From positions 17,190,040 to 17,254,039 of the forward strand of contig NC_045145.1 of NCBI RefSeq assembly GCF_008831285.2: a stretch of 64,000 nucleotides of DNA. Direction: 5' to 3'. The DNA is from Nymphaea colorata (lineage: Eukaryota > Streptophyta > Magnoliopsida > Nymphaeales > Nymphaeaceae). The notes under the pieces were generated by a model. It saw only the letters and a program-made list of their open reading frames with translations. It had not been told where the DNA came from and ran no database searches. Both the position numbers and the translations under genes were made by a program. Shown piece by piece: positions 927 to 42,089 of the stretch (the first letter of the stretch is position 1; every line of letters begins with the position of its first letter).

Positions 927-1298
927 ATGGCGAGGTTGCTTGCAAGCTGTTTAGGTGGAGCTGTTATGTTTCAGGCGTCCGGCGGCGGCCTGTTACTAAT
1001 CTGCGTCGCAGTGGTGGTACTCTCGGTCGTGTCCATGGTCGTCTTTGCTTGTGCCGACGGCTGGTATCGAAGGAAACCGGGTCATTTCCCTGGTGGTGGT
1101 GGCTACCATGGAGATGGAGGCGGCCACCACCATGATGGTGGTCCTCACCACGGAGGTGGCGGCTTCCATGGAGGTGGCGGCGGCCACCACCACGATGGTG
1201 GCGGCGGCCATGGAGGTGGAGGCCACCATGGTGGCGGCGGCCATGGAGGTGGAGGCCACCATGGTGGCGGAGGTCACCATGGGGGCGGTCATTATTAG
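927..1298 (+). CDS. GRP1: small membrane-anchored Gly/His-rich protein
   Basis: Single-exon 123-aa reading frame. Residues 1-18 are a short N-terminus. Residues about 19-43 are a strongly hydrophobic stretch (LLLICVAVVVL...) that reads as one transmembrane helix or uncleaved signal anchor. A basic WYRRK follows, and residues 54-123 are almost wholly Gly and His in GGGGHHGGGGH-type repeats. The His density could bind metal ions, which is inference. The ATG at 927 follows the gaagaa context also seen before the GRP copies at 4551 and 4951. The family recurs at 4459, 4951, 30091 and 37982, sharing the F-x-A-S-x-G-G-L-x-x-I-C core. I do not recognise a named family; 'glycine-rich protein' describes composition, not function. 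The frame is intact and conserved in paralogues, so a real gene is likely. Confidence 0.7.
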   Translation: MARLLASCLGGAVMFQASGGGLLLICVAVVVLSVVSMVVFACADGWYRRKPGHFPGGGGYHGDGGGHHHDGGPHHGGGGFHGGGGGHHHDGGGGHGGGGHHGGGGHGGGGHHGGGGHHGGGHY

Positions 1299-12452: not shown

Positions 12453-15089
12453 ATGGCCGAGCAAGCGATTGGAGTTGTTATAGAGAGGCTCATTTTGTTC
12501 CTGGCGGAAGAGGCGGTATCCATCTATGAACTCCGTGACCAAGTGGAGAGTATGCAAGAAAAATTGGGAAGGATTCGATGCTTCCTCAAAGATGCCGACG
12601 GACGGAGCGCAAGAAATGAAAGCATCAAGAATTGGGTGAATGAGATACGTCAGGTGGCCTATGACATTGAGGACGTCGTGGACAACTTTCTTGTAGAAGT
12701 TGAAAGTTATTATAACCGGAAGGATTGGAAGGGCAAAGCAAAGAAGTATGCCAATAAGCCTAGAGAGCTAGTAGAACGACTTAAGATAAGTTCCCAGATC
12801 GAGAAGATCAACAAGAAAATCGAAGGGATTACCCAGAGTAGGAAGGGGTTGGGTATCCGAGGCAGTGACGAGGGAGGAGACCCTCGAAGAGAGTCATTGT
12901 TGGAGATGAGGAGGAGGGATGCTTGTGAAGACCGAGAGCATGATGTTGTGGGGTTGGAGGAGAAAATCAACGAGTTAGTGAAGCAATTGGTTGAAGGGGA
13001 AGGCAGACGCCGCGTGATCTCTGTGGTCGGCCAAGCTGGGCTTGGTAAGACGGTTCTAGCCAGAAAAGTGTATAACCGTGCCAAGAGCAGCTTCATGTCT
13101 GCTGCTTGGATCCATGTGTCGAACAACAAGACGAAAGAAGTTCTGAGAGAGCTGTGTAAAGCCGTCCTTCTCCTTCCTGGAGACAGAGACAAGATAGAGC
13201 CGCAGAACGAGGGAGAGATGCGAGAGAGTATAGAAAAAAAATTGAAGGAGGAGAAGTACTTGGTTGTTCTCGACGATGTATGGACACCTGAAGCATGGGA
13301 TGGTATTAGGGGAGCTTTCCCGGATGGGAACAAGGGAAGCAGGGTTCTGATAACTACGCGAGACGGGAGGGTTGCGGAACGCTCCGACCAGAACACTCCT
13401 CCTTACAGGCCTCCCTTGCTGAACGAAGAAGACAGTCATAAGCTGTTCTTCAGGCACGCGTTCCCCAGATCCCCCTACTCATGCCCTCGTGAGTTGGAAA
13501 GTTCGGCCAAGAAGATTGTGCAAAGATGCGGCCGCCTGCCCCTGGCACTCGTTACCCTTGCAGGCATTCTGTCTGGAAAAGAACAGACGATTCAAGCATG
13601 GGAGGATTTTATTGCGGGACACAACTGGGATCTCACTCAAGGTAACCATGAGATCTCCGGCGTCCTGGCTCTGAGCTTCGACGACCTACCTTATTCTTTG
13701 AAACCCTGCCTGCTTTATTGCTGTGCTTTTCCGCGTGACTCCGCAATCCGAGTCAAGAGACTCTTAAGGCTGTGGATAGCGGAAGGTTTTGTGCAAAGAC
13801 AAGGGTCGAGGAGACCGGAGGCAGTTGCCGGGGATTACTTGGCTGAGTTGGTTGACCGCAGCCTGGTTCAACCTTGCAAGCGTAACTGCTTCGGCCAAAT
13901 CAAATCGTGTCGAGTTCATGATGTTTTAGGCCAAACGTTGCTAGCTACGGCAGAGGAGCAGAATTTCTTCAAGATTTATTCGGCGGACAGCAAGTGTGAC
14001 CTGTTGAAATGCCGCCGCCTCGCTATCCACTGTTGTCTTGAGCAAAGATCGCCTCCCTTGCATCTGGCTCGCGCCTTCATCTCCTTTACAGAAAGTGAAT
14101 CGCCAAACCGTCACGACATAATACTTCAGAATTTCAAGATGCTTAAAGTTTTAGACTTGGAAGGTGTTCGTAGTGTTAAGGAACTACCAAGTGAGATCGG
14201 GGATCTGGTCCTCCTAAGATATCTAGGCCTGAGGCACACATCAACTGCAACGCTTCCCAGATCAGTCAAGAGGCTCTACAACCTGCAGACGCTGGATCTG
14301 AGAACCTCTGCTGGTGTTCGTCTGTCACAAACAAAAGTCTCCCTAAAGTTGAAGGCCAAGCATGTAGCGAAGATGACCAATCTGAGACACTTATATTTTG
14401 GAAGTCGATCACGCGGCGAACTTTTTAATGCCATGGAAGTGCCGGAAGATTTTGGAGTGAGGCGCAGCTTAAAGGAACTGCAGATACTGTCATATGTAAA
14501 GGCAGGCGGCTGGGTGAAAAAGGGTTTGTGCACCATGACAAACCTCAGAAAATTGGGAATGCAAGTCCCGAAAGGATATGGGAGTGGGAGTGCTTTTGGG
14601 GCGATTGCCGAACTGAGCCACCTTCACAGCTTGTATCTGCAAGGGGAATTGCAAGATCTGCCAACAGATGCACTTAAGAATCTTACCAAGCTAACACTCG
14701 ATTCCTCCTGCTTAGGTGACGGCCCTTTCTCAGGATTACAAAAGTTGGAATCGCTCAAGAGCTTGAGGCTCATCAACAATGCTTACCAGGGCAAGAGGTT
14801 GTGCTGCTTAGGAGGTGGGTTCCCTTGTCTTGAAGTCTTGAACCTAGAAAACTTGGAGCATTTGGAGGACATGGTTGTGGAGTCCAGGGCCTTCGGTAAA
14901 CTCAAATACATGAGAATTGCCTCCTGCGGGCATTTGGATATGATCCCACAGGGGCTAGAGAACGTGAAGAGTCTCCAGGAACTGAAACTAATCGACATGG
15001 CGGCCCGCTTAGTTGAAAGAGTTCAACCTAACACGGGTAAAGATTGGCCCAAAATTATGCACATCGAATCGATCATTTTTACCACGTAA
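12453..15089 (+). CDS. NLR1: CC-NB-LRR immune receptor, RPM1 type
   Basis: 878 codons without interruption, the only open copy of the three NLRs here. The Rx-type coiled coil has EDVVD at 73-77. The NB-ARC domain has the P-loop GQAGLGKT at 193-200, kinase-2 LVVLDDVW at 270-277, SRVLITTRD near 295-303, GRLPLAL at 360-366, LLYCCAFP near 425 and VHD in place of MHD at 488-490. Irregular leucine-rich repeats follow from about 560. Such proteins are cytosolic or membrane-associated ATP/ADP switches that sense pathogen effectors. The ATG at 12453 matches the starts of NLR2 and NLR3. The stop at 15087-15089 overlaps a perfect splice donor (AC then GTAAGT); see the candidate exon at 15263, which would extend the protein to 891 aa. 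The GRLPLAL variant is slightly unusual. Confidence 0.93.
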   Translation: MAEQAIGVVIERLILFLAEEAVSIYELRDQVESMQEKLGRIRCFLKDADGRSARNESIKNWVNEIRQVAYDIEDVVDNFLVEVESYYNRKDWKGKAKKYANKPRELVERLKISSQIEKINKKIEGITQSRKGLGIRGSDEGGDPRRESLLEMRRRDACEDREHDVVGLEEKINELVKQLVEGEGRRRVISVVGQAGLGKTVLARKVYNRAKSSFMSAAWIHVSNNKTKEVLRELCKAVLLLPGDRDKIEPQNEGEMRESIEKKLKEEKYLVVLDDVWTPEAWDGIRGAFPDGNKGSRVLITTRDGRVAERSDQNTPPYRPPLLNEEDSHKLFFRHAFPRSPYSCPRELESSAKKIVQRCGRLPLALVTLAGILSGKEQTIQAWEDFIAGHNWDLTQGNHEISGVLALSFDDLPYSLKPCLLYCCAFPRDSAIRVKRLLRLWIAEGFVQRQGSRRPEAVAGDYLAELVDRSLVQPCKRNCFGQIKSCRVHDVLGQTLLATAEEQNFFKIYSADSKCDLLKCRRLAIHCCLEQRSPPLHLARAFISFTESESPNRHDIILQNFKMLKVLDLEGVRSVKELPSEIGDLVLLRYLGLRHTSTATLPRSVKRLYNLQTLDLRTSAGVRLSQTKVSLKLKAKHVAKMTNLRHLYFGSRSRGELFNAMEVPEDFGVRRSLKELQILSYVKAGGWVKKGLCTMTNLRKLGMQVPKGYGSGSAFGAIAELSHLHSLYLQGELQDLPTDALKNLTKLTLDSSCLGDGPFSGLQKLESLKSLRLINNAYQGKRLCCLGGGFPCLEVLNLENLEHLEDMVVESRAFGKLKYMRIASCGHLDMIPQGLENVKSLQELKLIDMAARLVERVQPNTGKDWPKIMHIESIIFTT

Positions 15090-15262
15090 GTTCCACATTT
15101 TCGTTGCTGAAATCTTCTGCTTCTGGTTATTTTCGCTAGCATTCGTTGAATTATTTCTATCGTTCTGTTCGTTTTTTCTGCTCGTCCCTTTCATGTAATA
15201 TGCAAATTCCCTTGTTCCAATTGTTAACTACCCTGCCCTTTATATTTGGAATTCTACTGTAG

Positions 15263-15305
15263 GTCCGCTGTTGAAAAAGAATTTGATGTTGGCCAACTGA
15301 AGTAG
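15263..15305 (+). CDS. Candidate hidden terminal exon of NLR1
   Basis: Splicing from the GTAAGT at 15086 to the acceptor ctactgtag ending at 15262 removes a 177-base intron. It joins AC to G and adds SAVEKEFDVGQLK before a TAG. NLR2 has the same donor word, the same acceptor word and an exon of the same 43-nt length encoding SAVEREIDVAQIN before TAG (19347-19389, minus strand). The changes are all conservative: K/R, F/I, G/A, L/I, K/N. That pattern suggests coding constraint. Without transcripts the unspliced form, ending at 15089, remains possible. Confidence 0.6.
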
Positions 15306-18708: not shown

Positions 18709-19563
18709 GGTGCACCTAACCCAAACAAGTACACTCTTAGAACATGAATTTTTATGCTCCCCATTTTATTTAGATTTCTCAAAAGTTAATCTATTGAACA
18801 GAGGGCTAAGAGGAGGTTGTTAAATGATTGATTGACTCTATTCTTAACCTTCTATTAAAAAAAAAGGTATAGTTCAGCCTTTAAAGGTGCTACTCTCTTA
18901 AAGATGCAAGTTACCAGCGACAATATTTATGTGCTTCGTCACGTGTATATCTTCAAAAGTAACGGTCAATGTAAACGTCAATCGACCACCAGACACAAAC
19001 ACAGATCCATCAACCCGTAAAAAAACAAAGCTTACAAGCTTATTACACATGCGCACATACAACAACTTAGGCGTTGGACAAGACAAACATAAATATATAG
19101 AAATCTGGTGACCAGACACAATCCGCCGGCGACTAAAATCTAAAACATTCACAATATATAGAAATCCATAACTTACAAGTCACACAGCATATGCAATAGT
19201 ACTGGAGAAGATATAGGAACACAGTTCGCCGGCAATTAAACTAAATCAAACATTGACAATAACATACTAGAAAATTCAGTCTGTTGCCAAATGGTTGCCC
19301 CTGGTGCAGAGAATCAATGTCGATTCCTCATGATTAAGTCTGGTGGCTAGTTTATTTGAGCAACATCAATTTCTCTTTCAACGGCGGACCTACAGTAGAA
19401 TTCCAACGATTAAAAAGGATTGGGAGTTAAGAAGATGGAAATTTGCAGGTAGCATGAAATGGAAGATTAAAGTGAATGAGTACATCAGTAGAAATTATTT
19501 TATGAATGCTAGTGATGATAACAAGTAACAGAGGATTTAAGCAAACGAAAACAAGGAACTTAC

Positions 19564-20008
19564 TGTTAGCAAAAGGAATGACCTGTCTGCACTTCCTCTT
19601 CTTATGCTCCTGTGAATGACACAACACAAGAACACAACACACTAATCGAGCACTTGTTTCTACAAGTGATCACAAAGGCATGACATGTGATAAGAGCACA
19701 CAACACTAAAAATTTGGAGCACACTTGAAATGCTTTTTCTCACACATTTAGCCAACCCAAAGGGCCATATATATACATGTAAGAAAAAACTGAAAAATAA
19801 ATGACATTGACTCTTGGTAACTCCACTGTGGTCATTATGGACATATTAAAAACAGAAAACTGAAAATATAATGACCATATTAAAAACAAAAAACTGAAAT
19901 TTAAAATAGGGCACATGTCTTGGAACGATGGAACTTTTGGAGAACCCAAAAGTTAAACCGTTTACCTTCTTCATAAAGGCAGCTGCATTAATTTTGCATT
20001 AACTTTCA
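19564..20008 (-). repeat. Copia 3' LTR (left)
   Basis: 445 bp, nearly identical to 24125-24557. It begins tgttagcaaa and ends aactttca on the plus strand, so it has canonical TG/CA ends. The polypurine tract adjoins its inner edge. Confidence 0.93.
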
Positions 20009-23000
20009 TCACTCCCCCTTAATGCAAAGTCTGAAACACCAAGGTGAGACCGAAACATAATAAATTTTGGGTATGAAAGTGCCTTTGTAAATCCATCCGC
20101 AACTTGCTCATTGGTTGAGCAATACTTCAACACAATTTGACCTTTACCAACAATCTCACAAATGAAATGATGACGAAGTTCAATATGTTTTGTCCGTCCG
20201 TGGTAAATCGGATTTCTTGTCATTGCCATAGTTGCCTTGTTGTCACAATGAATTGGTGTCCCTTCAGTTTGACTTTGACCAAGATCTTCCAAAACTCGAC
20301 GCATCCAAATTGCCTGACAAGTAGCTGCAGATGCAGCAATATACTCCGCTTCTGAAGATGATAATGCTGTCGTACTTTGCTTCTTTGAACACCATGATAT
20401 AGCACCTGATCCAAGTGTAAAGACATAACCGCTTGTGCTCCTTCAATCATCTACAGCTCCTGCTCAATCACTATCAGTGTAACCAAGTAAGTTAAAACAA
20501 ACATCTTATTTATATCAAATTTCATATTTAGTAGTTTCACGGATGTAACGCAAAACACGTTTTGCTGCCCCCAAATGGTGTAATGACGGATTGTGCATGA
20601 ATCTGGATACCAAGCTGACAGCAAATAAAATATCTGGTCGTGTATGAGTCAAATATAACAAGCCACCAACTAGACCTCTAAACAATGTTTCATTGGCTTT
20701 AGCAGTCCCATCAGACAAAATCAACTTTTCACCTGCATTCATAGGAGTAGAGCACGACTTGCAATCTAACATTTTATACTTCTTAAGTAGGCTTAATGCA
20801 TATTTTTCTTGAGAGATAAAAATACTATTATTTGTTTGGACAACTTGAAGACCAAAAAAGAAATGCAATAAACCCAAATCTGCCATTTCAAACTCACTTA
20901 TCATACTGTCCTTGAATTCTTGAATGAGCACATCACTTGATCCCACGTAAATAATGTCATCTACATAAACACATACCACAAGCATATCAATGCCTTCATT
21001 TTTTAAGTATAATGTGGGTTCACTCTCACAACGTCGAAACCCATTTTTGTGAAGTTATGTGTCAAGCCTCTCATACCATGCTCTTGGTGCTTGCTTGAGG
21101 CCATAAAGGGCCTTCTTCAACTTATACACTTTCTTCTCATGTCCACTTATGACAAAGCCTTGTGGTTGATGTACATATACATCTTCTTCTAAAGCACCAT
21201 TCAAAAAAGCAGATTTGACATCAAATTGAAATACCTTCCATTTTAAGTGAGCTGCAAGTGCCAATACTAGCCTAATAGTCTCAAAACGAGCAACAGGAGA
21301 AAAAGTTTCAAAATAATCAATACTATATTTTTGTACATACCCTCTGACGACTAGTCTGGCCTTGTATTTTTGCACATCTCCATCAACATTATATTTCAAT
21401 TTGTAAACTCATTTCACACTTATAGGTTCCTTTCTTTGTGGTAAATCTACTAGCTTCCATGTATCATTTCTCTTAATTGTATCGATCTCTTCTTGCATTG
21501 CTTTTTCCCATTCTTCTTTACCACATGCTTCCTCATAACATGATGGTTCAATTACCATAAAAGCAAATGAACAAGAAGCATATATATCATCTAGAGATCG
21601 TACCTTTCTTGGTGGAGAAGACTCATCTGTAATTATTTCGACATCTTCTTCATGATCTGAATTGGTCTCTTTTGAATGAGTAGCACTTGACGTTGATGCA
21701 TTTGAGTGAGAAGTTGAATCAACAAATGGAATATGTTGATCTTCTATTGTTGTCCACTCCCATGATCCATTCTCATCAAAAATGATATCACGCCGAATAA
21801 TTAAAGACTTTGTTACTGGATTGTATAGTCTATAACCTTTTGAGCTATTACTATAACCCACAAAAATACATTTCTCACTCTTTTTATCCATTTTGTCTCG
21901 ACTACTAGAATCAAGCAGAGAGTAGACAATGCATCCAAAAACTTTCAAATTACTTACATCAGGTTTTTTATTCCTCCATGCTTCATATGGAGTCATATTG
22001 CAGACTGCTTTGGTTGGTGATATGTTGAGAAGATACACAGCTGTAGCTACTGCTTCAGCCCAAAACTCATTTGGAAGATGCTTCTCATTCAACATGCTAC
22101 GAGCCATCTCTACCACTGTACGGTTTTTTCTTTCAGCTACTCCATTTTGTTGAGGAGTTTTTCTTATTGTCAACTGTCTATGTATGCCATGTAATTTGCA
22201 AAAATTGTCAAAATCATTTGACAAAAATTCTCCCCCTCTATCAGTACGAAATTTTTTTATAGGTCGCCCACATTCTTTTTCTGCAAACACTTTAAATTCC
22301 TTGAATTTTTCAAAGGCTTCGGATTTTTCAACAAGAAAAAACACCCAACTCATGCGAGAAAAATCGTCAGTGAATAGTAGAAAATATCTACTATTATTCA
22401 GAGATGGAGTTCTTGTTGGTCCACAAATGTCAGCATGCACTAATTCTAAAGGAGTTTTTGCTCTCCATGCTTTCCCAACTGGAAATGGAAGACGATGTTG
22501 TTTTCCATACACACATGCTTCACAAATATCTTCATTATTGGTAAGATAAGGTAAACCAACAACTAATTTTTTCTGTCCCAATAACTTCAGTCCATTGTAG
22601 TGCAAGTGTCCATATCTTAAGTGTCATAACTTAGACACTTTATTCATGTCTGCTAAGGCATATGCATCAAAGTGTGAAAGCTCGATTGGAAACATTTTGT
22701 TCTTTGTCATGTGCACTATTATAGGTGGCATGGTAGAACATTTCTTTTTGATTTCACATACATCATCATGAAATGAAATCAAATATCCTTTTTGTGCTAA
22801 CTGTCCAACGCTTAGTAAGTTATATGCTAATCCAGGTATATAATAAACATCATGTATCAACCTTTTAGTACCACCTTTAATTGATATCTCAATTGTGCTT
22901 TTACCATCAATTTGCACCTTTTTGTTGTCTCTAAGTCGAACTTGTTGCTTCACTGATTCATCAATGTCACAAAACAAGCCTCTCTTTCCTATCATATGAT

Positions 23001-24124
23001 TACTGCATCCACTATCTAAAAACCATACATGATCAATATTTTCATTTGACTCTGTATGAGTAAAAAATAAGTTACCATCTTCTGCTTTCTCTTCCACTAC
23101 ATTAGCTTGTTGTTTTGCTTTATCCCAACAATACGCTTCAGTTTGACCATTTCTTTTGCAAAAAACACAATACCTGGCATGTTTTTGATTGTTAGTATCA
23201 CCTCCTTCTGACTTGTTTCGGACTGCCTCAAATCTTCCTCGTCCACGTCCACGATAGTTACCTCTACCTCGCCCGCGATATGCATTCTTTCGTACAGTTG
23301 CTTCCTTTCTCTCTTTGCTAAAGTCATCCAACTTGACTTGAGCTTGGAATGCTTGTTCAACACTTTTCTCAGTTGACCTGTTCATTCTTTGTTCATGGGC
23401 TAAAAGAGAACCCCAATAATTCATTAGTAAAGTATGCAGTCAAATCCTTAGACTCTTCTATAGCCGTAACCACATGATCAAATTTAGCCGGTAAGCTCCT
23501 CAATATTTTTTCTACAATTTTCTGGTTGCTAACAACCTCTCCAAAGGTTTTCATCTCATTTATAATTATGAAAGCTCTTGAAAAAAAATCTTGGACTGAT
23601 TCATTGTTTTTTCATAAACAATGTCTCAAACTCTTTACGGAGGATTTGGAGTTTCACTGTCATTACCTTCTTATCACCATGATATTCTTGCTTGAGAATA
23701 GTCCAAGCTTCATTTGAACTAGTAGCACCAGCAATTCGAGGAAAGATAGTCTCACTTACAGCTTGTTGAAGAACAAGCAAGGCTTTTGAATCCTTCTTCC
23801 GTTGCTCTCTTGATTCAACTGTCTTTTCTCCTTGTTTTGAGCTCTCTGCACTTTCTATATAACCATTTTCAACTAAATCCCAAAGATCTTGTGACAAAAA
23901 GAAGGTCTTCATTTTTATGCTCCAAAAACCATAATTATCACCACTAAATACCGGTATGAGCGATTGAAAAACATTTGAAGTGGACATGTCATTAGCCATA
24001 ATGAACAAAAATTTCTCACAGAAATTTTGTCGAACAAGTTATGTGCAGACTTTACCTTGCAGGCCTCTCTTTTGCACTTTTACCAACAATCACGACAACA
24101 CAATCGACCTGTCTCTGATACCAA

Positions 24125-24557
24125 TGTTAGCAAAATGAATGACCTGTCTGCACTTCCTCTTCTTATGCTCCTGTGAATGACACAATACAAGAACACAACA
24201 CACTAATCGAGCACTTGTTTCTACAAGTGATCACAAAGGCATGACATGTGATAAGAACACACAACACTAAAAATTTGGAGCACACTTGAAATGCTTTTTC
24301 TCACACATTTAGCCAACCCAAAGGGCCATAAGAAAAAACTGAAAAATAAATGACATTGATTCTTGGTAACTCCACTATGGTCATTATGGACATATTAAAA
24401 ACAGAAAACTGAATATATAATGACCATATTAAAAACAAAAAACTGAAATTTAAAATAGGGCACATGTCTTGGAACGATAGAACTTTTGGAGAACCCAAAA
24501 GTTAAACCGTTTACCTTCTTCATAAAGGCAGCTGCATTAATTTTGCATTAACTTTCG
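24125..24557 (-). repeat. Copia 5' LTR (right)
   Basis: 433 bp. The primer-binding site lies one base inside it. The outer edge abuts NLR2 coding sequence; the expected 5-bp target duplication is not visible. Confidence 0.93.
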
Positions 24558-27186
24558 TGATAATAATGATTGACGGAATGTGCTTTATTTTGAGCCAGTC
24601 ACTACCCTTGTCAGGTTGAACTCTTTTTACTAAGGCGGGCACCATGTCTATCGTTTCAGCTCCTTAAGAATGCCCATTGTCCCCAACCCTTCAGGGATCT
24701 CAACCAAATTGTTGCAACTGGCAATTCTCATGTATTTGAGTTGAGGAAAGGCTCCAGATTCCACATGTATGTCCGCTAAAGAATCCAAATGTTCAATGTT
24801 CAAGACTTCAAGATTAGGGAACCCATCTTTTAGGCATCCCATTGTCTTGCCATTGTATGCATTGTTGACGAGCCTCAAACTCTTGAGCGATTGCAACGTC
24901 TGTAATCCCAATAAGGGATCATCCTGTAAGCAGGAGGAATCCAGTGTTAGCTTGCTAATGTTAGCAAACGCAACTTTGGGTAGATCCTCCAATCCCCCTT
25001 GCAGGTACAAGCTGTCAAGCTCTTTTAGTTGGCAATAGGGCTAAGAGCACTCCTACTCCTGTATCCTTTTGCGACTTGCATTCCCAACCTTACGAGGCTT
25101 GTCATGGTGGGTAAACCCTTTCCCACCCAACCACCAGCCTTCACATAAGATAGCGTCTGCAGCTCCTTTAAGGCACCCTTCGCTCCAAAATCGTCAGGAA
25201 CTTCCATGGCATTAAAATTTTCGTGGCGTCTATTCCCGAAATATAAATGCCTTAGACTGGTCATGTACTTTAGATGCTTTGCCTTGAAGTACTTCAACGG
25301 GATTTTAGATGGTGATAGACTAACATTGGCAGAAGTTCTCAGATCCAATGTTTGCAGGTTGTGGAGTTGCTTGATGGATCTGGGCAGCGTTTCAATTGAT
25401 GTGTTCCTCAGGCCCAGATATCTCAATAGGACCAAATCTCCAATCTCGTTGGGCAGTTTCTTTACACCGCGAACACCTTCAAGATCTAGAACTTTAAGCA
25501 GCTTGAAATTCTCAACTAGATCATAACAGGTTGGTGCTTCACTTTTTTGGAAGGAGATGAACGAGCGAGTCAGACGCAGCAGCGTCTGTGTTCTTTGCTG
25601 AAGGCAATTATGGTGGACGGCGAGGCGGCGGCAATTTGACAGATCATGGTGTCCGTCGGCCGCCGAGTGAGTTCGAAAGAAATTCTGCTCCTCTGCTGTA
25701 GTTACCAACATTTGAAGCAGAACATCATGAACTCGGCACGATTTGATTTGCCCAAAGGAGTTCCTTTTGCAAGGTTGAATCAGGCTCCTCTCGACCGATT
25801 CAACCAAGTAGTCCATGGCAACTTCCTCCAGTCTCCTTCTCCCTTGTTTCTGTACAAAACCTTCTGCAATCCACTGTCTTAATAGTCTCCTGACTCGGAT
25901 TTCAAAGTTCCCCGGGAATGCGCAGCAATAAAGCAAACAGGATTTCAGATCAGAAGTCAAGTAGTCAAAGCTCAGGTCCAGGATGCTCGCGATCTCACCT
26001 TTGTTAAGCTCCCAGTCGAGACCGGCAACTACATGCTTCCATGTTCGAGCCGTTGGTTCTTTTTTAGACAGAATGGCTCCCAGGTTAACGAGTGCTAGCG
26101 GTAGGCCACCGCTTTTTTGCACAATCTGGGTCGCCAAACTTTTCAACTCATGGGGGCATGAGTGGGGAGGCGTGGGGAACGCGTTTTTGCGGAACAGCTC
26201 ATGACTGTCTTTTTCGTTCAGCAAGGGCAGCATGTAAGGGTCAGTCTGCAGATCAGCGTGTTTAGCAACCCCTACATCTCGTGTAGTCATCAGAACTCTG
26301 CTTACCGTGTTCCCATCGGGCAAAGCTCCTCTAACAGCATCCCATGCCTCAGGCGTCCATACATCATCGAGAACAACCAGGTACTTCATCTCCTTCAATT
26401 CTTTTTGTATACTCGCTCGCATGTCTTCCTCGTTCTGCTGCCCTATCTTGTCTCCAGGAAGGCTAAGGACGGCTGTACACAGCTCTTTCAGAACTTCTTT
26501 CGTCTTGAGCTTCGACAGATGGATCCAAGCAGCAGAGATGAAGCTGCTCTTGACACGGTTGTACACATTTCTGGCCAGAACCGTCTTGCCAAGCCCAGCT
26601 TGGCCGACCACGGAGATCACGCAGCGTCTTGTTTCCCCTTCAATTAATCGCTTCACCAACGTGTTGATTTCCTTCTCTAGTCCCACCACATCATTCTGTT
26701 CGTTTTCTTCACAAGCGTCCCTCCTCCTCCTAGCCAACAAGCTTTCTCTCGCAGGGTCTTCTCCCTTGTCGATGTTCTGGATATCCAAGTCCTCCCTACT
26801 CCTGATGGTACCGATTCTCTCCCTGATCTTGTTAATCGAGGAGCTTATCTCCAAGCGGGCCTTCATCACCTTTGGCATGTGGACATACCTCTTCGTGTTT
26901 GCCACGAAATCGCTCCTGACACATTGGCTTTCAACTTCTGCGTGGAAGGTGTCTAGGACCGAGGACGTCGTCTATTTCGCAGGCCACCTGACGCATCTCA
27001 TTCACCCAATTCTTGATCGTTTGTTTCTTCCCGCTAGGACTCTCCACATCATTGAGGAGGCACCGTATCCTTCTTAGTTCAGCTTCCACCGCCTTCACTT
27101 GGTCACGGAGTTCACAGATGGATTTAGCCTTCTCCTCCAGGAATTTAACTAGGCTCCCCAGAAGGACCTGAATAACTGGATCAGCC

Positions 27187-27223
27187 ATCTGTTGAAGGAC
27201 CTGAATAACTGGATCAGCCGTCT
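27187..27223 (-). repeat. In-frame 33-bp tandem duplication at the NLR2 start
   Basis: The first 11 codons (MADPVIQVL plus two) are repeated in tandem just upstream of the NLR2 start. The upstream copy has ACG where the lower copy has ATG. The duplication is in frame, so the ancestral start may have been upstream. CT-rich leader follows. Confidence 0.7.
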
Positions 27224-30970: not shown

Positions 30971-32525
30971 CTACCATAGAGCCGATCGGTAACAAAATCG
31001 TTGCATTATCCAAACAAAAGATCCCATGCCGCCCTCTTTAGAATTCAATTCAAGCATTTGAGGTTGCAGGACCTAAGATCTTGGGATATTATGTCGCATC
31101 TTATTTGAAAGTTGCGGTAGCCGAATGCCCCCATAAAAAAAATTGATGTGATAATAACGCCGTCGACCTTTTTGATGCGACCTGACTGACAATTTCGGGA
31201 GGGTTGAACAAGGTTCTGGCGGGCGTGTTTGTAGGACAACTGAAAAAAAAGGTTCTCGAACGGGGAAGTTATTACCCAGCAACAACCTGCAGGTATCATA
31301 TTCTGACGAAAATTCTCATGCTGGATCATTATTTGACCACCAAGTAACAATAATAATAATTAAACCAAAAGTTCAACGTAATCATTAATTAAACCATAAA
31401 AATAATTGCAATGATATGCATTGTCATATATAAAAATCTTCAAGGCCTTCAGAAATACTTGTGCCTATGGTTGGACCGCCATCTTCATAGGCAACAAAAG
31501 CAAAATTAAAAGATTATGTTTCTTAGTTCATATACCCGACATATAATGTAGGAGTACGGTAAGGATGAAGATAAGAAAACTTAGTGCCAAAGCATATGAG
31601 TGTTCAGGCTTTTCCAAATATTATTTTTCCTAAACTTCACTCAATCAATTGAGAATAAAAAGGTAGACAGGAATCAAACAGGTAACTCAAACTGAAAAGA
31701 GCGGAAAACTCGTGTTGTGAAATCAAATTGAAATCTTTTGACAAAGCATTTTGCTGCTTAACATAAACTAAAAGAGAAACGAACAGAAGACTTTTTATAT
31801 TGAAATCATGCAAAGCAAGCATCACATTCAACAAAGCTGAAAGAAAGCCGCATTGGGACCCAAGTAAAGAAAGGAAAAACTAGAAAACTGAATAAAAATT
31901 AACCCCATTATGGACACGAATAAAGAAGGAAAAAGGAAAGGCTTTCACGGTACTTTTTCCAACGCTACGCCTAGCTGAGTTAAGCATTTTCAGCTTTATG
32001 TTTTCCAAGGCAAATATATGATTCATCAAGAATGTTGAATTAACCGTCCACCATTTTCAGCTTGTAAAAATTCTGCTTACGTATGAAAAAATTTACTGTA
32101 ATTGATCCACTTATGGGATTATCTGTATTTGGGGGAATTGGAAACATCTCTTTGGAATTTCCATTTATCGTGTATTCCAGGGTTTAAAATGATTATGCAT
32201 ACTAAATCTGCTGCTAAGTGTCCTTATGGTACTAACTATTAAAAAATAAATGGATGAATTTGAAAAATTAATCCATAGTTCTTCATTCTCTCTTGATCCA
32301 TAGTGCCATTGAATTGAACAAAGTAATCCACCCTACAGTACGATAACGACTTATGCAGTAGTAGACAACACAGAGGCAGTAGAATTCGAAGAGATAAAAA
32401 TAACGGGGTAGTTAAGAAGATGGAGATTTTCTGGTAACATGAAATGGAAGATCAAAGTGATATTCAACGAACACAAATGTGAATAATTTAATGAATGCAA
32501 GTGAGATAACTAGAAACAGAAGATT

Positions 32526-35173
32526 TCAGCAACGAAACTGCGGAACTTGCTTGGTAAAAATGGTTAACTGGGTGGCCTTAGTTATGTGCCAATCTTTACC
32601 CATGTTCGGTTGAACGCCGTCAACTAAGAAGGCGGCCATGTCGACTAGCCTCAGTTCCTGCAGACTGCTTATGCTCACTAGCCCCCTTGGGATCATATGC
32701 AAATTGCCGCAGGAGGCAATTCTCATGAATTTAAGCTGACGAAAGGCTCCAGACTCCATAACAACATCCCGTAAATCCTACAAGTTTTCAAGGTTCAAGA
32801 CTTCAAGACAAGGGAACCCACCTCCTGAGCAGCACAGCGTCTTGCCGTGGTATGCATTGATGAGCCTCAAGCTCTTGAGCAACTGCAATGTCTGTAATCC
32901 AGAGAAAGGATCGTCACGTAAGCAGGAGGAATCAAGTGTTAGTTTGGTAAGCTTCACAAATGCAGTGTCCGGTAGATTCTCCAACTCCCCTTGCAGATAC
33001 AAGCTGTGAAGGTGGCTCAGACTTTGGGCAATAGATCCAAAAGCACTCCTAGATGACCCATATGCTTTTGGGACTTGCATTCCCAATTTTCTGAGGTTTG
33101 TCATGGTGCACAAACCCTTTTCCACCCATCCGCCTGCCTTCACATATGACAGTGTCTGCAGTTCCTTTAAGCTGCGCCTTACTCCAAAATCTTCCGGCAC
33201 TTCCATGGCATTAAAAAGCTCGCCGCGTGATCGACTTCCAAAATATAAATGTCTCAGATTGGTCAACTTCGCTACATGCTTGGCCTTGAAATATTTCAAC
33301 GGGACCTTAGAGTGTGATAAACGAACGTTTGCAGAGGTTCTAAGATCCAACGTTTGCAGGTTGGAAAGCTTCTTGACGGATCTGGGAAGCGTTTCAATTG
33401 ATGTGTGCCTCAGGCCCAGATATATAAGGAGGACCAAATCTCCAATCTCCACTGGCAGTTTCTCAACACTACCAACACCTTCAAGGTCTAAAACTCTAAG
33501 TAGCTTGAAATTTTTAATTTGGTCAGACCAAATTGGTGGTTTACTTTCTGGAAAGGAGATAATGGAGCGAGCATTCTGCAGGGAGCATGTTTTTTCCTCA
33601 AGACGACGGTGGGTGGCGAGGCGGCGGCAATTCAACAGGTCACAGTTGTTAGGTGTAATTGGGTCAATTTGAAAGAAATTCTGCTTCTTTGCTATAACTG
33701 CCAACGTTACACGCAGAACATCATGAACTCGGCAAGACTTGATTTCCCCAGATGAGTTTCGTTTGCAAGGTTGAATGAGGTTCCTGGCAACCAACTCATT
33801 CAAGTAACGCATCGCGACTGCATCCGGTCTCCTATCCTCTTCTTTTTTCACAAAACCTTCTGCGATCCACAGTCTTAAGAGTCTCTTGACTCGGATCTCA
33901 GAGTCCCCCGGGAAAGCACAGCAATAAAGCAAACACGGTTTCAGATCATAGTGTAAATAGTCAAAGCCCATGGTCAAGATTCTCGAAATCTCAGCCTTAC
34001 CTTGAGTGATGTCCCAGTTGAATCCATCCACAAAATCCTTCCACGCAACAACTGTTGGTTCTCTTCCAGACAGAATGCGTCCGACGGCAACAAGTGCCAA
34101 GGGCAGGCCACCACATTTTGCCACAATATCGTTTGCCAAGCTCTGCAACTCTTGAGGGCAGGACTGGGGAGACCCGGGGATGGCGTGTTTGCAGAGCAGC
34201 TTATAGATGTCTCTTTGGTTCAGCAAGGGGATCCTGTAAGGGGGAGTGTGCATGTCGGCGTGTTTGGCCACCCCCTCATTTTGTGTTGTTATTAGAACTC
34301 TGCTCCGACTGTTCCCATCTGGGAAAGCTCCTCTAATGGCATCCCAAGTCTCATTTTTCCATACATCATCAAGAACAACCAAGTACTTCTTCCCCATTAG
34401 TTTGCGGGCTATTCTCTCCCGCATCTCATGAGCTTCAACCAGCTTCTCTGTCTCGTGTCGAGGGAGGTGTAGGACAGCTTTACACAGCTCCCGTAAAACT
34501 TCATTTGGATGCGTCGACACATGGATCCAAGCAGCGGAGCCGAAGCTGTTCTTGGCCCGGTTGTACACTTTTCTGGCTAAACCGTCTTTCCTACCCAAAC
34601 TTGGCCGACCACAGAGATCACGCAGCGCCTGCCTTCCCCTTCAACCAATCGCTTCACTAACTCGTCCTCTAACCCCACAACATCATGCTCTCGGTCTTCA
34701 CAAGAATCCCTCCTCCTCGCCTACAACAACGACACTCTCCGAGGGTCTCCTCCCTCGTCAGTGCCTCGGATACCCAACACCTCCCTACTCCGGGTAATCT
34801 CTTCGATTTTCTTGTCGATCTTCTCGATCTAGGAGTTTATTTCCCTACGCTCAATGATCTCTTTAAGCTTGTGGGCGAACCTCTTTGCTTTGCCCTTCAA
34901 ATTCTTGCGGTCATAATAACTTTCAACTTCCAAAAGAAAGAGGTCTATGACGTCCTCGATTTCATAGGCCACTTGACGCATCTCATTCACCCAATGCTCA
35001 ATCTTGCTATCACTCGCGGTCCGACCGTCGGCGTCCTTGAGGAAGCACTGAATCCCTCTGAGTTTACGTTCCACCGCCTTCACTTGCTCACGGAATCCAA
35101 ATATGGATACGGCCGCCTCCTCCAGGAACAAAGCCAGCCTTCCTAGAGCAAACCCAATGGCCGCCTCCGGCAT
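32526..35173 (-). pseudogene. NLR3: CNL pseudogene
   Basis: It starts at the complement of 35171-35173 (MPEAAIGFALGRLALF) with an Rx-type CC domain and EDVID. Against NLR1 there are three single-codon stops: CAG to TAG near 34830, GAG to TAG near 34717, and GAG to TAG near 32777. One base is lost just after the P-loop (near 34575), where the motif itself reads GQVWVGKT. The rest is well preserved: LVVLDDVW, SRVLITTQ, GGLPLAL, LLYCCAFP, VHDVL, and LRRs close to NLR1. At the 3' end the splice-donor word is GCAAGT instead of GTAAGT, and the SAVE terminal exon is not found. A (CT)n tract lies directly upstream. It is not likely to encode a working receptor. Confidence 0.9.

Positions 35174-35190: not shown

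Positions 35191-35234
<44 letters not shown>
35191..35234. repeat. (CT)n microsatellite in the NLR3 leader
   Basis: About 22 CT units ending 20-60 bases upstream of the NLR3 start codon on the minus strand (GA on the sense strand). NLR1 and NLR2 also have CT/GA-rich leaders at this place. Confidence 0.85.
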
Positions 35235-35237
<3 letters not shown>

Positions 35238-37590: not shown

Positions 37591-37981
37591 AGATGCCTCA
37601 ATCAAAAAAACAAGAGATACATATCCTTAAAAAGGTTGCCATAATATGAAAAACTTACTTTCCAAGAAAAGTAGTGGGCTGATCGATCGGAGAAGCTGAC
37701 AGGAACTAGAATGGAATCTGCACATATCATGTTGAAAAATATTTGAAACGGTTGCTTCGTTCAAGGGTTTCAGAAGTCAAGATCGCCGTCCTTTTTCATG
37801 ATCCAGAAGTTTCACGATACAGCTGAGATCGACGCGGCACTGCCTTTTTCTCCCTCAAACTAAAGAGATGGTCAAAGGAAGGATGAAGAGGGAGGAGACA
37901 ATTTTTTTTTTCCTCGCAAGAAACTGCGAGGAAGCATCGATACTTACGAGCTTGCTGGATATAAACGGGCGTCATGGGGGA

Positions 37982-38470
37982 ATGCCCGCAGGGAATACGT
38001 TAATCCTTGGTGAAGCATATTATCCGTTTCAAGCCTCTGCCGGTGGTCTCTCGGTCATTTGTTTTGCGGCGATCATGTCACATGGTGTGGTATCCACGGT
38101 CATCGATGGGTTGGGGTTCACTGTTCATCGCCTCAAGCGAAAGCTTGGTCGCCGCAAGCGAAAGCCTGGCGGTAAGCGTGGGAAATTAGGTGATGACGGG
38201 GGCGATGGGGGCGATGGTGGAAATGATGGCAGTGATGGGGGCGATGGTGGATATGATGGCGGCGGGTGTGATGGTGGTGGTGGGTTTCACGTCGGCGGTC
38301 ACCACCACGTCGGCGATGTTGGTGGTGGGTTTCACGGCGGCGGTCACCACCACGTCGGTGGGTTTCACGGCGGGGGTCACCACCACGTCGGCGATGGTGG
38401 CGGTGGCGGTGGCGATGGTGGCGGTGGCGGTGGCGGTGGCGATGGTGGCGGTGGCGGTGGCGGTTGTTAA
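37982..38470 (+). CDS. GRP3: membrane-anchored Gly/Asp/His-rich protein
   Basis: From the ATG at 37982 the product is 162 aa. MPAGNTLILGEAYYPFQASA leads to a hydrophobic core (GGLSVICFAAI), then a strongly basic stretch (HRLKRKLGRRKRKPGGKRGK), then a long tail of GGDGG and GGHHHVG repeats ending GGGGC. An in-frame upstream ATG at 37868 would add 38 residues, but the GRP2 alignment favours 37982. The membrane segment is weaker than in GRP1 and GRP2 (SHGVVSTVIDGLGF), so anchoring is less sure. The tail repeats are nearly perfect at DNA level and likely expand and contract. The AATAAA at 38539-38544 and 3' UTR match GRP2. Function is unknown. Confidence 0.62.
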   Translation: MPAGNTLILGEAYYPFQASAGGLSVICFAAIMSHGVVSTVIDGLGFTVHRLKRKLGRRKRKPGGKRGKLGDDGGDGGDGGNDGSDGGDGGYDGGGCDGGGGFHVGGHHHVGDVGGGFHGGGHHHVGGFHGGGHHHVGDGGGGGGDGGGGGGGGDGGGGGGGC

Positions 38471-39029: not shown

Positions 39030-40232
39030 TTTGGCAATCCAAAAAGTAATAAAATGTTTCAAGAATCTGCAAATTCATGAAATGAATAGTTTGTTGCCGT
39101 CTCATCATCAAATGGCTGCCAGGAGTACTGTACTGGGGGAGGAAATCAATGTGGTCTGCTTACCACTAGCTTTGCATCATATTAGTTGGGTACAAAATCA
39201 AGCTCCACAACAAGGTGCGCATGCTTTAATTTTATGAACTTGTTATGCAAATGGTTTGTTACTACTTATTTATTAGAAAACGTCTGCTTATGCAGGACTT
39301 CCTTCCCACCGTTGACAGGAAATAATTGAATTAATGGGAGTTCGGTCTTAGAAAAATCGGGATCGCTGGTAAAACTTTATCCTAAAAATGAAAATTACCA
39401 AAGGCAAGCATTTTAGCGAAATTGTTTATTTGAAATTGACCGTGCTTCACTTGATAGACAGGAAGCTTGGCTAAGAAAGCAAACAATCTCTTGAGTGCAG
39501 CTTATAGACATGGAATTATTTTGGGTATTGTTTAGATTATGGCGAATTTAATACCCCTTAATCCATGCATCTCGAGCTCAACTGAAAGAAGAGAAGTCCA
39601 CATGCCAGCAGGTTTTCAAATCGATCGGTAACAAAATCGTTGCATTATCCAAACAAAAGATCCGATCCCATGTCGCCCTCTTTAGAATTCAATTCAAGGA
39701 TTCGAGATTGGAGATATCGCATCATATTTGAAAGTTGTGGTAGCCGAGTACCCCCATAAAAAAAATTGACGTGATAAATAAGAATGTCGTCGACCTTTTT
39801 GATGCGACCTGACTGACGCGGACAATTTCAGGAGGGTTGAACAAGGTACTGGCGTGTTTGCAGGAACACCTAAAAAAAGAGAAGGTTAGACTTGCCAAGA
39901 GAAGAGTGGGCAGATCGACCGTGGAAGTTATCAACAACCTGCAGTTATCATATTCGACTTATATTAGTTTTCCAAACTAACTCAATCAATCGAGATTAAA
40001 AAGATAAACAGGAACAGGTATTTCCACGATTAAATGATATTTCATCTGGTCGTTGCTACTAATTCTTTTGTGCTCTCCATTACCAGTACAAAAGAGAAAT
40101 CGACATGGAATATGTAAAATTTAAAAAAAAAAAAAGCCCCAAGCCCTTTTTCAGAATTAAAAAAGTTGTCAAAAAGTTTAAAAAATTCAAAAAAGAAACG
40201 TTTTTTAATTCGTCAAATACCTCACCTCCAGT
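39030..40232. other. Intergenic in duplication unit B
   Basis: 39620-39960 is the copy of 30975-31350. No gene is seen; frames here are not conserved between the two copies. Confidence 0.4.
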
Positions 40233-40436
40233 TAGAGCTGCACACAAGCTGAGTCGAGCTCGAGCTCCCTGACACAAGCTCGAGGTGGACTCAATTATAC
40301 AGAGTCGAGCTCAACTCAACTCCCTTAACTCAATCAACTCGTTTATGTCTTGTTTTTTTTTTAACTTGTTTATGTCAACTCGTTTAACTCGTTTACAACA
40401 CCAAGGCAAATTCTATGGTACAACTAAAAGGGCAAA

Positions 40437-40606
40437 ATGCAGACAAACAAAATCCACTATGAAAACCAATCACGTACCCAAGCACCAATTCAAACGCAAC
40501 ATGTTTCTCAAACAAAATGAAATGCAGACAAACAAAATCCACTATGAAAACCAATTACGTACAGAAGCACCAATTCAAACGCAACATGTTTCTCAAACAA
40601 AATGAA
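40437..40606. repeat. 85-bp tandem duplication inside the hAT element
   Basis: Two adjacent copies (40437-40521 and 40522-40606), differing at only a few positions. Each begins atgcagacaaacaaaatcca. Confidence 0.85.
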
Positions 40607-40625
40607 ATTTAAGAAAGAGATTGAT

Positions 40626-40728
40626 TACTGCTTTGCGCAGTTTCTTTATCAATGGCATCTGCTAGACTGCTTCCTCTTCAAACCTCTTTGGTTGGAACCT
40701 ACACATTCGTCAAAAAAGTGAAAAATCA

Positions 40729-40767
<39 letters not shown>

Positions 40768-40944
40768 GAGGAGGATGGAAAACAGAGTGCAAGAGATACT
40801 CACCGTCTTCGAGCCCGAGCATGGAAGAGTGTGACAAGCTCCCTCAGTGGGCATGTCATGGAGGGCATCCAGATCAACTACCCTGAAACTGAACTTCTTG
40901 AACGTCCTCCTCTTCATCTGTGCCGGCGACCTCTGTTTCGACAT
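40626..40944 (-). pseudogene. Captured RPS15 (uS19) gene fragment with intron
   Basis: From the ATG at 40942-40944 (minus) it reads MSKQRSPAQMKRRTFKKFSF and VDLDALHDM, the conserved start of cytosolic ribosomal protein S15. One base then shifts the frame; the shifted frame reads ELVTLFHARARR up to a donor at 40804. After an intron containing a (GA)n tract, an exon ending at 40698 reads QRGLKRK and, past a small insertion, PLIKKLRKA. Only the first third of S15 is present. The retained intron shows capture at DNA level rather than through a cDNA. It is wholly within the hAT element 40233-41439 and is not expected to make S15. Confidence 0.78.
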
Positions 40945-41880
40945 CCACCTGTGAAAAAACCCTAATTGTGTATCGGCGGAGCTTCAAAAGATCGCTAGGG
41001 TTTCAAGGAAAGGCGAGAATAGAGCCTAACCAGTATAGTGGTTTGACTCTACCGGATGGATGGTGGTGGTCATGGCATGTGCGGCAGTGAATCGGTGTGG
41101 CCGTGGGCACTAGAAATGAAAGAGAGACAAAGGGAGAAGTCAAAACCAAAATGTTAAAAATGAAAATATAATAAACAAAAAAGTTTAACCTAAATCGGTG
41201 AATCGGTTTTGGTGGCTCGGTGAACCAGTTCATATAATTAAGCGAAACGATTTTCAGTAATCGAACCAAGCCGAGCCGAGCATAAATGAGTCGAGTTCTT
41301 ACAACTCGAACTCAACTCATTTAATGTTTCAAGTATAAGTTTAAACTCGAGCAAGGCTCGTTTATAAACGAGTCGAACTCGAGTCGAGTTTTTCTGGGCG
41401 AGTTCGACTCGAGTTGGCTCGACTCGTTGTACAACCCTAACCTCCACCTTTGCTTTTTCCAATGTATATTACTGCATGCACCAACCCTAGTGCACACAAC
41501 TCACCCTCGAAAAAAAAATATGCAAAACAAGCATCGCATTCAACAAAACTGAAAGAAAAGCAGATTGGCTGCAGAAGGAAAAACTAGAAAGCTGAATAAA
41601 TACCCCATTATGCACACGAATAAAGAAGACAAAATCAGACTGAATGAGAATGAATGTATGAAGCAGTTGTCGACGAGCGATGGTCCTGGTTGAAGAATGG
41701 AAAAAGAAAAGGGATTCCACATGACTGTCTAAGAGAACATAGTACCTTTTACAGCTAGCTGAGTTATCCATTTTCAGCTTCATGTTTTCCAAGGCAAATA
41801 TATGATTCATGAAAAATTTCAAATTAACTGTCCACCATTTTCAGCTTGTAAAAATTCTGATTACACATGAAAGATTTTAC

Positions 41881-42089
41881 TTTAATGGACCCAGCTATGG
41901 GCTTATCTGCATGAAAGTGATAATCGGTAAAACTTATTATTTATTATGAGGAATAGGTTGAGAACTTTGTCATATCTGGGGGATAAAACTTTGTCATATT
42001 TCGATCGTCTTCTACTAGTTTTATCCCCCAACCGGCCCTGGACCAACTTAATCATTTTAAATTTTTATATGTTTTACAATGTCAGGTAT
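41881..42089. other. Intergenic
   Basis: Nothing recognised between the end of duplication unit B and the Copia fragment. Confidence 0.3.

What the first reader, a model, noticed from the sequence alone, without database searches (positions are those of the whole stretch)
15086..15305. A hidden 43-nt terminal exon in the NLR genes, conserved between NLR1 and NLR2
The apparent NLR1 stop (ACG TAA) overlaps a perfect donor, AC-GTAAGT. An acceptor ctactgtag 177 bases on opens SAVEKEFDVGQLK-stop. NLR2 has the same donor, the same acceptor, the same exon length (43 nt) and SAVEREIDVAQIN-stop. All five changes are conservative while the intron sequence is diverged. A simple single-exon call would miss the true C-terminus.
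Basis: partly seen in the sequence, partly recalled or inferred. Interest (0 to 1): 0.72.

Follow-up and report, generated by a model that had tools for sequence, protein, structure and literature searches.

The report
Ordinary last intron in plant NLR
A plant disease-resistance gene very probably ends in a short extra exon behind an ordinary intron, so a simple gene call would miss its last 13 amino acids; this is a useful annotation correction rather than a surprise.

Summary
The NLR1 anatomy is as described: exon 1 12453-15085, a 177-nt GT-AG intron 15086-15262, and a 43-nt exon 15263-15305 adding SAVEKEFDVGQLK-stop (878 aa becomes 891). The intron looks real: GTAAGT donor, TGTAG acceptor, TTAAC 35 nt upstream, 45% T. 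The TAA "inside the donor" is not special: any phase-2 intron starting GTAA shows it. The conservation argument is much weaker than claimed. NLR2 is a frameshifted pseudogene split by a Copia element at the donor; its "same donor" directly follows the 3' LTR. A third copy, NLR3, has GCAAGT at the donor and lacks the exon. Across the 13 codons dN/dS is 0.57, with 5 residue changes against about 5.2 expected at random. Exon and intron identity do not differ (81% and 74%, p=0.43), and the intron is better conserved than nearby synonymous sites in two of three pairs. Three genome searches found no further copy. Of ten distant relatives inspected, five have an uninterrupted C-terminal tail of similar length and five end earlier; a profile test of the tail was not significant. 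Verdict: a probable, ordinary terminal coding intron in a CC-NLR; splicing itself is unproven here.

The parts
12453..15085 (+). NLR1 exon 1: Rx_N coiled-coil, NB-ARC, winged helix, LRR; 877 codons plus two bases
   Evidence: ORF; Pfam PF18052, PF00931, PF23559, PF23598
15086..15262 (+). Terminal intron of NLR1, 177 nt, phase 2, GT-AG, 45% T (splicing inferred)
   Evidence: Sequence; 91 of 6384 windows of this size, both strands, step 20, reach its T count
15084..15091 (+). 5' splice site AC|GTAAGT; contains the TAA (15087-15089) that ends the single-exon ORF
15224..15228 (+). Branch-point-like TTAAC, its A 35 nt upstream of the acceptor; TTAAC also stands there in NLR2 and NLR3
   Evidence: alignment; motif form recalled
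15263..15305 (+). Terminal exon of NLR1, 43 nt, SAVEKEFDVGQLK-stop (TAG 15303-15305)
24558..27188 (-). NLR2 body, pseudogene (tblastn pieces in changing frames)
   Evidence: Four pieces in frames -3, -1, -3, -2, reaching 24595; DNA match to 24550
24125..24557 (-). 5' LTR of the Copia-type element at the NLR2 donor; its first base (24557) could instead belong to NLR2
   Evidence: Direct repeats; LTR alignment; gag, integrase and RVT_2 pieces between the LTRs
19564..20008 (-). 3' LTR of the same element; 8 mismatches in 433 aligned bases to the 5' LTR
19390..19563 (-). Remainder of the NLR2 terminal intron, 174 nt, cut off from the NLR2 body by the element
   Evidence: 127 of 171 aligned bases identical to the NLR1 intron
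19347..19389 (-). NLR2 terminal exon, 43 nt, SAVEREIDVAQIN-stop, now an orphan
32553..35173 (-).
32377..32550 (-). NLR3 intron relic starting GCAAGT; similarity to NLR1 and NLR2 ends just before the acceptor, terminal exon not found

Best explanation
NLR1 is an intact CC-type NLR gene with an intron near its 3' end. The spliceosome removes 15086-15262, which deletes the apparent TAA and joins codon AC|G to a 43-nt last exon, giving an 891-residue protein with 13 extra C-terminal residues. The intron was present in the ancestor of the three-copy cluster. Afterwards NLR2 and NLR3 decayed: NLR2 took frameshifts and a Copia insertion at its donor, NLR3 took stops and lost the exon. Shown: sequence anatomy, splice-site matches, presence or absence in the three copies, the Copia split. 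Inferred: that splicing takes place, that it is the main form, and that the tail is made and matters.
For: GTAAGT donor, TGTAG acceptor, TTAAC with its A at 35 nt, T-rich 177-nt body (45% T against 23% in exon 1, 28% in exon 2 and 36% in the 200 nt after the stop). The NLR2 acceptor and 43-nt exon length are identical, with no indel in the exon against 9 gap columns in the intron. The blastn match between NLR1 and NLR2 ends exactly at the exon's stop codon, 15305. From a common LRR column to the C-terminus the spliced form has 50 residues; five relatives with an uninterrupted frame have 50, 49, 45, 42 and 54.
Against: No transcript was available. The 13 codons show no detectable purifying selection: dN/dS 0.57 (2.5 synonymous, 5.5 nonsynonymous), 5 residue changes against 5.2-5.3 expected, joint simulation 0.13-0.17. 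Five other relatives end earlier: two at 28 residues from the same column, three earlier still, so a tail is not obligatory. A profile of relatives' tails does not favour the exon-2 peptide: 48.6 bits against 48.1 for exon 1 alone; 323 of 2000 random genomic peptides and 728 of 2000 shuffles score as well or better. Of 15 AGs examined after the donor, two others have more upstream pyrimidines (13 of 20 against 12) and three have as many. The -1 base of the donor is C, not the usual G (consensus recalled).
Confidence: 0.85

Rival explanations
1. The intron is spliced only part of the time: the retained form stops at the TAA (878 aa), the spliced form carries the 13-residue tail. The two proteins are identical up to residue 878, so splicing acts as a switch for the tail.
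For: Residue 878 is threonine (ACG) either way and both forms end in frame. Reviews describe a CNL gene whose isoforms differ only at the C-terminus, RGA5 with its third intron in rice (passages of PMC6032283, and PMC4100160).
Against: The strong donor predicts efficient splicing; any phase-2 GTAA intron has this property, so nothing here points to regulation. A passage of PMC4100160 says the alternative splicing characterised so far in CC-NBS-LRR genes appears not to be required for resistance.
Confidence: 0.1
2. Not an intron: translation ends at the TAA and the downstream 43-nt frame is a chance open stretch in the 3' UTR.
For: Thirteen codons stay open often by chance (8 random changes leave them open in 76-79% of simulations); no selection detectable in them; the tail profile test is negative; five of ten relatives end before such a tail.
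Against: Donor, acceptor and T-rich body together; identical acceptor and exon length in NLR2; the intron is closer between copies than synonymous sites in 3 of 3 pairs, significantly in 2 of 3, while the 200 nt after the TAG align poorly (111/173 identical with 54 gap columns).
Confidence: 0.05

Closest known systems
CC-type NLR (CNL) resistance proteins; nearest solved chains NRC3, NRC2, Sr35, and further down RPP13-like protein 4 (recalled as ZAR1)
   Same: Rx_N, NB-ARC, WH_DRP and LRR_14 in order; NRC3 matches residues 10-848 at E=1.6e-101
   Different: The best stretches of these chains end at residue 849 or before, so they neither support nor refute exon 2
Rice RGA5, a CNL whose isoforms differ by splicing of its third intron
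   Same: A late intron whose alternative splicing changes only the C-terminus (passages)
   Different: RGA5's last part carries a RATX1 domain; here it is 13 residues with no known domain
Ordinary phase-2 GT-AG plant introns
   Same: Donor, acceptor, T-richness, length; any phase-2 intron beginning GTAA shows an in-frame TAA at its first codon (follows from the code)
   Different: No difference seen

Membership tests
CC-NBS-LRR (CNL) gene | Rx_N, NB-ARC and LRR domains in order | tested here: met
   PF18052 at 5-85, PF00931 at 169-388, PF23559 at 426-492, PF23598 at 545-823
CC-NBS-LRR (CNL) gene | Intact reading frame | tested here: met
   878 aa open for NLR1; NLR2 and NLR3 fail this
Spliceosomal GT-AG intron | GT donor and AG acceptor near consensus | tested here: met
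   the consensus is recalled, no splice-site model was run
Spliceosomal GT-AG intron | T-rich body and branch-point-like site | tested here: met
   45% T; TTAAC with its A 35 nt upstream
Spliceosomal GT-AG intron | Removed from mature RNA | not testable with these tools
   No transcript data held
Protein-coding terminal exon | Purifying selection on codons | tested here: inconclusive
   13 codons, one gene against one pseudogene, dN/dS 0.57
Protein-coding terminal exon | Peptide homologous to the tail of relatives | tested here: inconclusive
   Length fits 5 of 7 aligned relatives, 3 more end earlier; profile score not above chance

The most novel reading that the evidence does not exclude
A splice-controlled stop codon: retention or removal of one intron decides whether this immune receptor carries a 13-residue C-terminal tail, with the two proteins identical up to residue 878. 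A Copia insertion at the same splice donor in NLR2 would have removed that choice in one paralogue.
Probability: 0.07. Interest if true: 0.4.

Novelty: new member of a known kind. Interest (0 to 1): 0.15.

Why it matters
It corrects the predicted C-terminus of one NLR and shows that the apparent conservation rests on one intact gene and one pseudogene. Wrong C-termini matter for cloning and structure work on NLRs, but a gene predictor with splice models would probably find this exon (inference).

Tried and rejected
Codon selection test on 13 codons: no power. Exon against intron identity: no difference. Search for further paralogues holding the intron or exon: three DNA searches return only the three clustered copies. 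The pattern search gives 13 matches, 2 of them the known exons at 0 mismatches and 11 at 3 mismatches, against 16 for the reversed control pattern; I did not inspect those 11 individually.

Tail test. One search lists 13 distant places. Seven of the genes were aligned (L017, L018, L021, L022, L024, L025, L074). L016, L019 and L020 were seen to end earlier and left out of the alignment. L072 was left out untested, and two places (C5:8557931, C8:18457975) had no locus. L026, L029 and L041, printed by the motif scan, were not used. The profile used five of the seven (not L018, L021, which end before the tail) and was not significant; an aromatic residue that seemed to line up with exon 2 was therefore dropped as evidence. 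In L075, a broken relative of L017, a similar LLLLRYDDREGYQSL stretch is seen; it was not used.

Reading the donor-overlapping stop as special was rejected: it follows from intron phase. A missing target-site duplication at the Copia insertion was considered as a sign of recombination; a GTAAG duplication followed by a 6-nt loss on one side explains it more simply, but this is inference.

Literature: searches (414 papers, 20 listed; none; one, human NLRP3; 29, 12 listed) looked for NLR genes with short or misannotated last exons; no listed title or abstract start describes this case, and I opened only PMC4100160 (passages). (7 papers on Gpa2/Rx1 terms) led to passages of PMC6032283. I recall that some CNL genes (Rx, Gpa2, Pm3) have introns near the 3' end, but confirmed this in no call. 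So I make no claim that this is unreported.

Full report
The window lies in a 408-Mb genome of 783 contigs. This size is close to the published 409-Mb, 804-scaffold Nymphaea colorata genome (passages of PMC7015852), but the species is my inference. NLR1 (12453-15089) is an intact CC-NLR.

Anatomy of NLR1. The single-exon frame ends ACC ACG TAA GTT. The last bases form AC|GTAAGT, and 177 nt later ATTCTACTGTAG|GTCCGCT opens 13 codons and TAG. Exon 1 has 2633 nt and exon 2 has 43, together 892 codons with the stop, 891 residues. Because the intron is phase 2 and starts GTAA, a TAA in frame at its first codon is automatic. The T content is 45% in the intron, 23% in exon 1, 28% in exon 2 and 36% in the 200 nt after the stop; 91 of 6384 windows of the same size, both strands, are as T-rich. 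A TTAAC lies with its A 35 nt before the acceptor and is present in all three copies.

NLR2. Body: 27188 to about 24558 on the minus strand, four tblastn pieces in frames -3, -1, -3, -2. Intron and exon: 19563 to 19347. Between them lies an LTR element with Pfam pieces of copia-type gag (PF14223), Pol_BBD, integrase core (below its curated cut-off), SH3_retrovirus and RVT_2. Its LTRs of 433 and 445 bases differ at 8 of 433 aligned positions, K=0.019, about 0.7 to 1.3 million years at assumed rates of 1.3e-8 and 7e-9 (the rates are recalled). The junctions are ATCAC-GAAAGTT and GCTAACA-GTAAGTT: the element sits at the donor, to within the one ambiguous base at 24557. No 5-bp duplication is visible; a GTAAG duplication followed by loss of 6 nt would account for this (inference).

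NLR3. 35173 to 32553 on the minus strand, with stops and a frame change. The donor position reads AAGCAAGT. Similarity to NLR1 ends at 32377, before the acceptor AG, and no terminal exon was found by peptide pattern or blastn in the window. Part of the sequence after that point matches one other place in the genome search, 249-406 of the 427-base query at 87%, which lies in this window at 41755-41912.

Conservation. NLR1 and NLR2 exons are 35/43 identical, introns 127/171 (p=0.43). In 13 codons there are 8 base differences and 5 residue changes; simulations with 8 random changes give a mean of 5.2-5.3 residue changes and stay open in 76-79%. Aligned exon-1 codons of the same pair have dN/dS 0.40. 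The intron (without its last 3 nt) is closer between copies than synonymous sites of codons 601-877; differences 44/168 against 77/174 (NLR1-NLR2, p=0.0007), 34/165 against 55/188 (NLR1-NLR3, p=0.066), 35/169 against 76/174 (NLR2-NLR3, p=6e-6). This may reflect different mutation rates, sequence exchange, or constraint on the intron; I cannot separate these. The 200 nt after the stop align poorly (111/173 with 54 gap columns; score -20 against a shuffled mean of -40.5, sd 11.9, best of 200 shuffles -4), with one short local match (score 26, best of 500 shuffles 29). So similarity falls off at the end of exon 2, though some remote likeness may go on.

Relatives. The three-copy family is isolated: the next long matches in the genome share roughly 30-36% identity. 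Three searches with DNA of the region find no further copy. Of ten distant relatives inspected, seven were aligned: five have a tail bringing the count from a common LRR column to 50, 49, 45, 42 and 54 residues, two stop at 28; the other three end earlier still. NLR1 has 37 without exon 2 and 50 with it (37 = 50 minus 13). A profile of the five tails does not score the exon-2 peptide above chance. I did not test whether these relatives have last introns of their own.

Conclusion. Splicing of 15086-15262 and a coding 43-nt last exon are likely (0.85) on signal and composition, not on the conservation argument offered. It is an ordinary gene-structure correction. Whether retention is regulated is open.

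Noticed in passing
19564-24557 (-): A Copia-type LTR element sits at the NLR2 splice donor without a visible target-site duplication; LTRs differ at 8 of 433 aligned positions.
   Followed up: partly
15086-15259, 19393-19563, 32377-32550: The terminal intron is closer among the three copies than synonymous sites of the adjacent exon (significant in 2 of 3 pairs).
   Followed up: partly
31000-32128 (-) and 39639-41912 (-): The sequence downstream of the NLR3 pseudogene is repeated in five pieces at 39639-41912 (77-87% identical); nature unknown.
   Followed up: no
35192-35235 (-): An AG/GA microsatellite lies just upstream of the NLR3 start.
   Followed up: no
927-1298 (+) and 37868-38470 (+): Two glycine- and histidine-rich open frames share, by eye, an FQAS-GGL hydrophobic stretch near the N-terminus; not tested.
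   Followed up: no
L016, L019, L020: Three related NLR frames end shortly after the last LRRs without a tail; they may also have unrecognised last exons.
   Followed up: no
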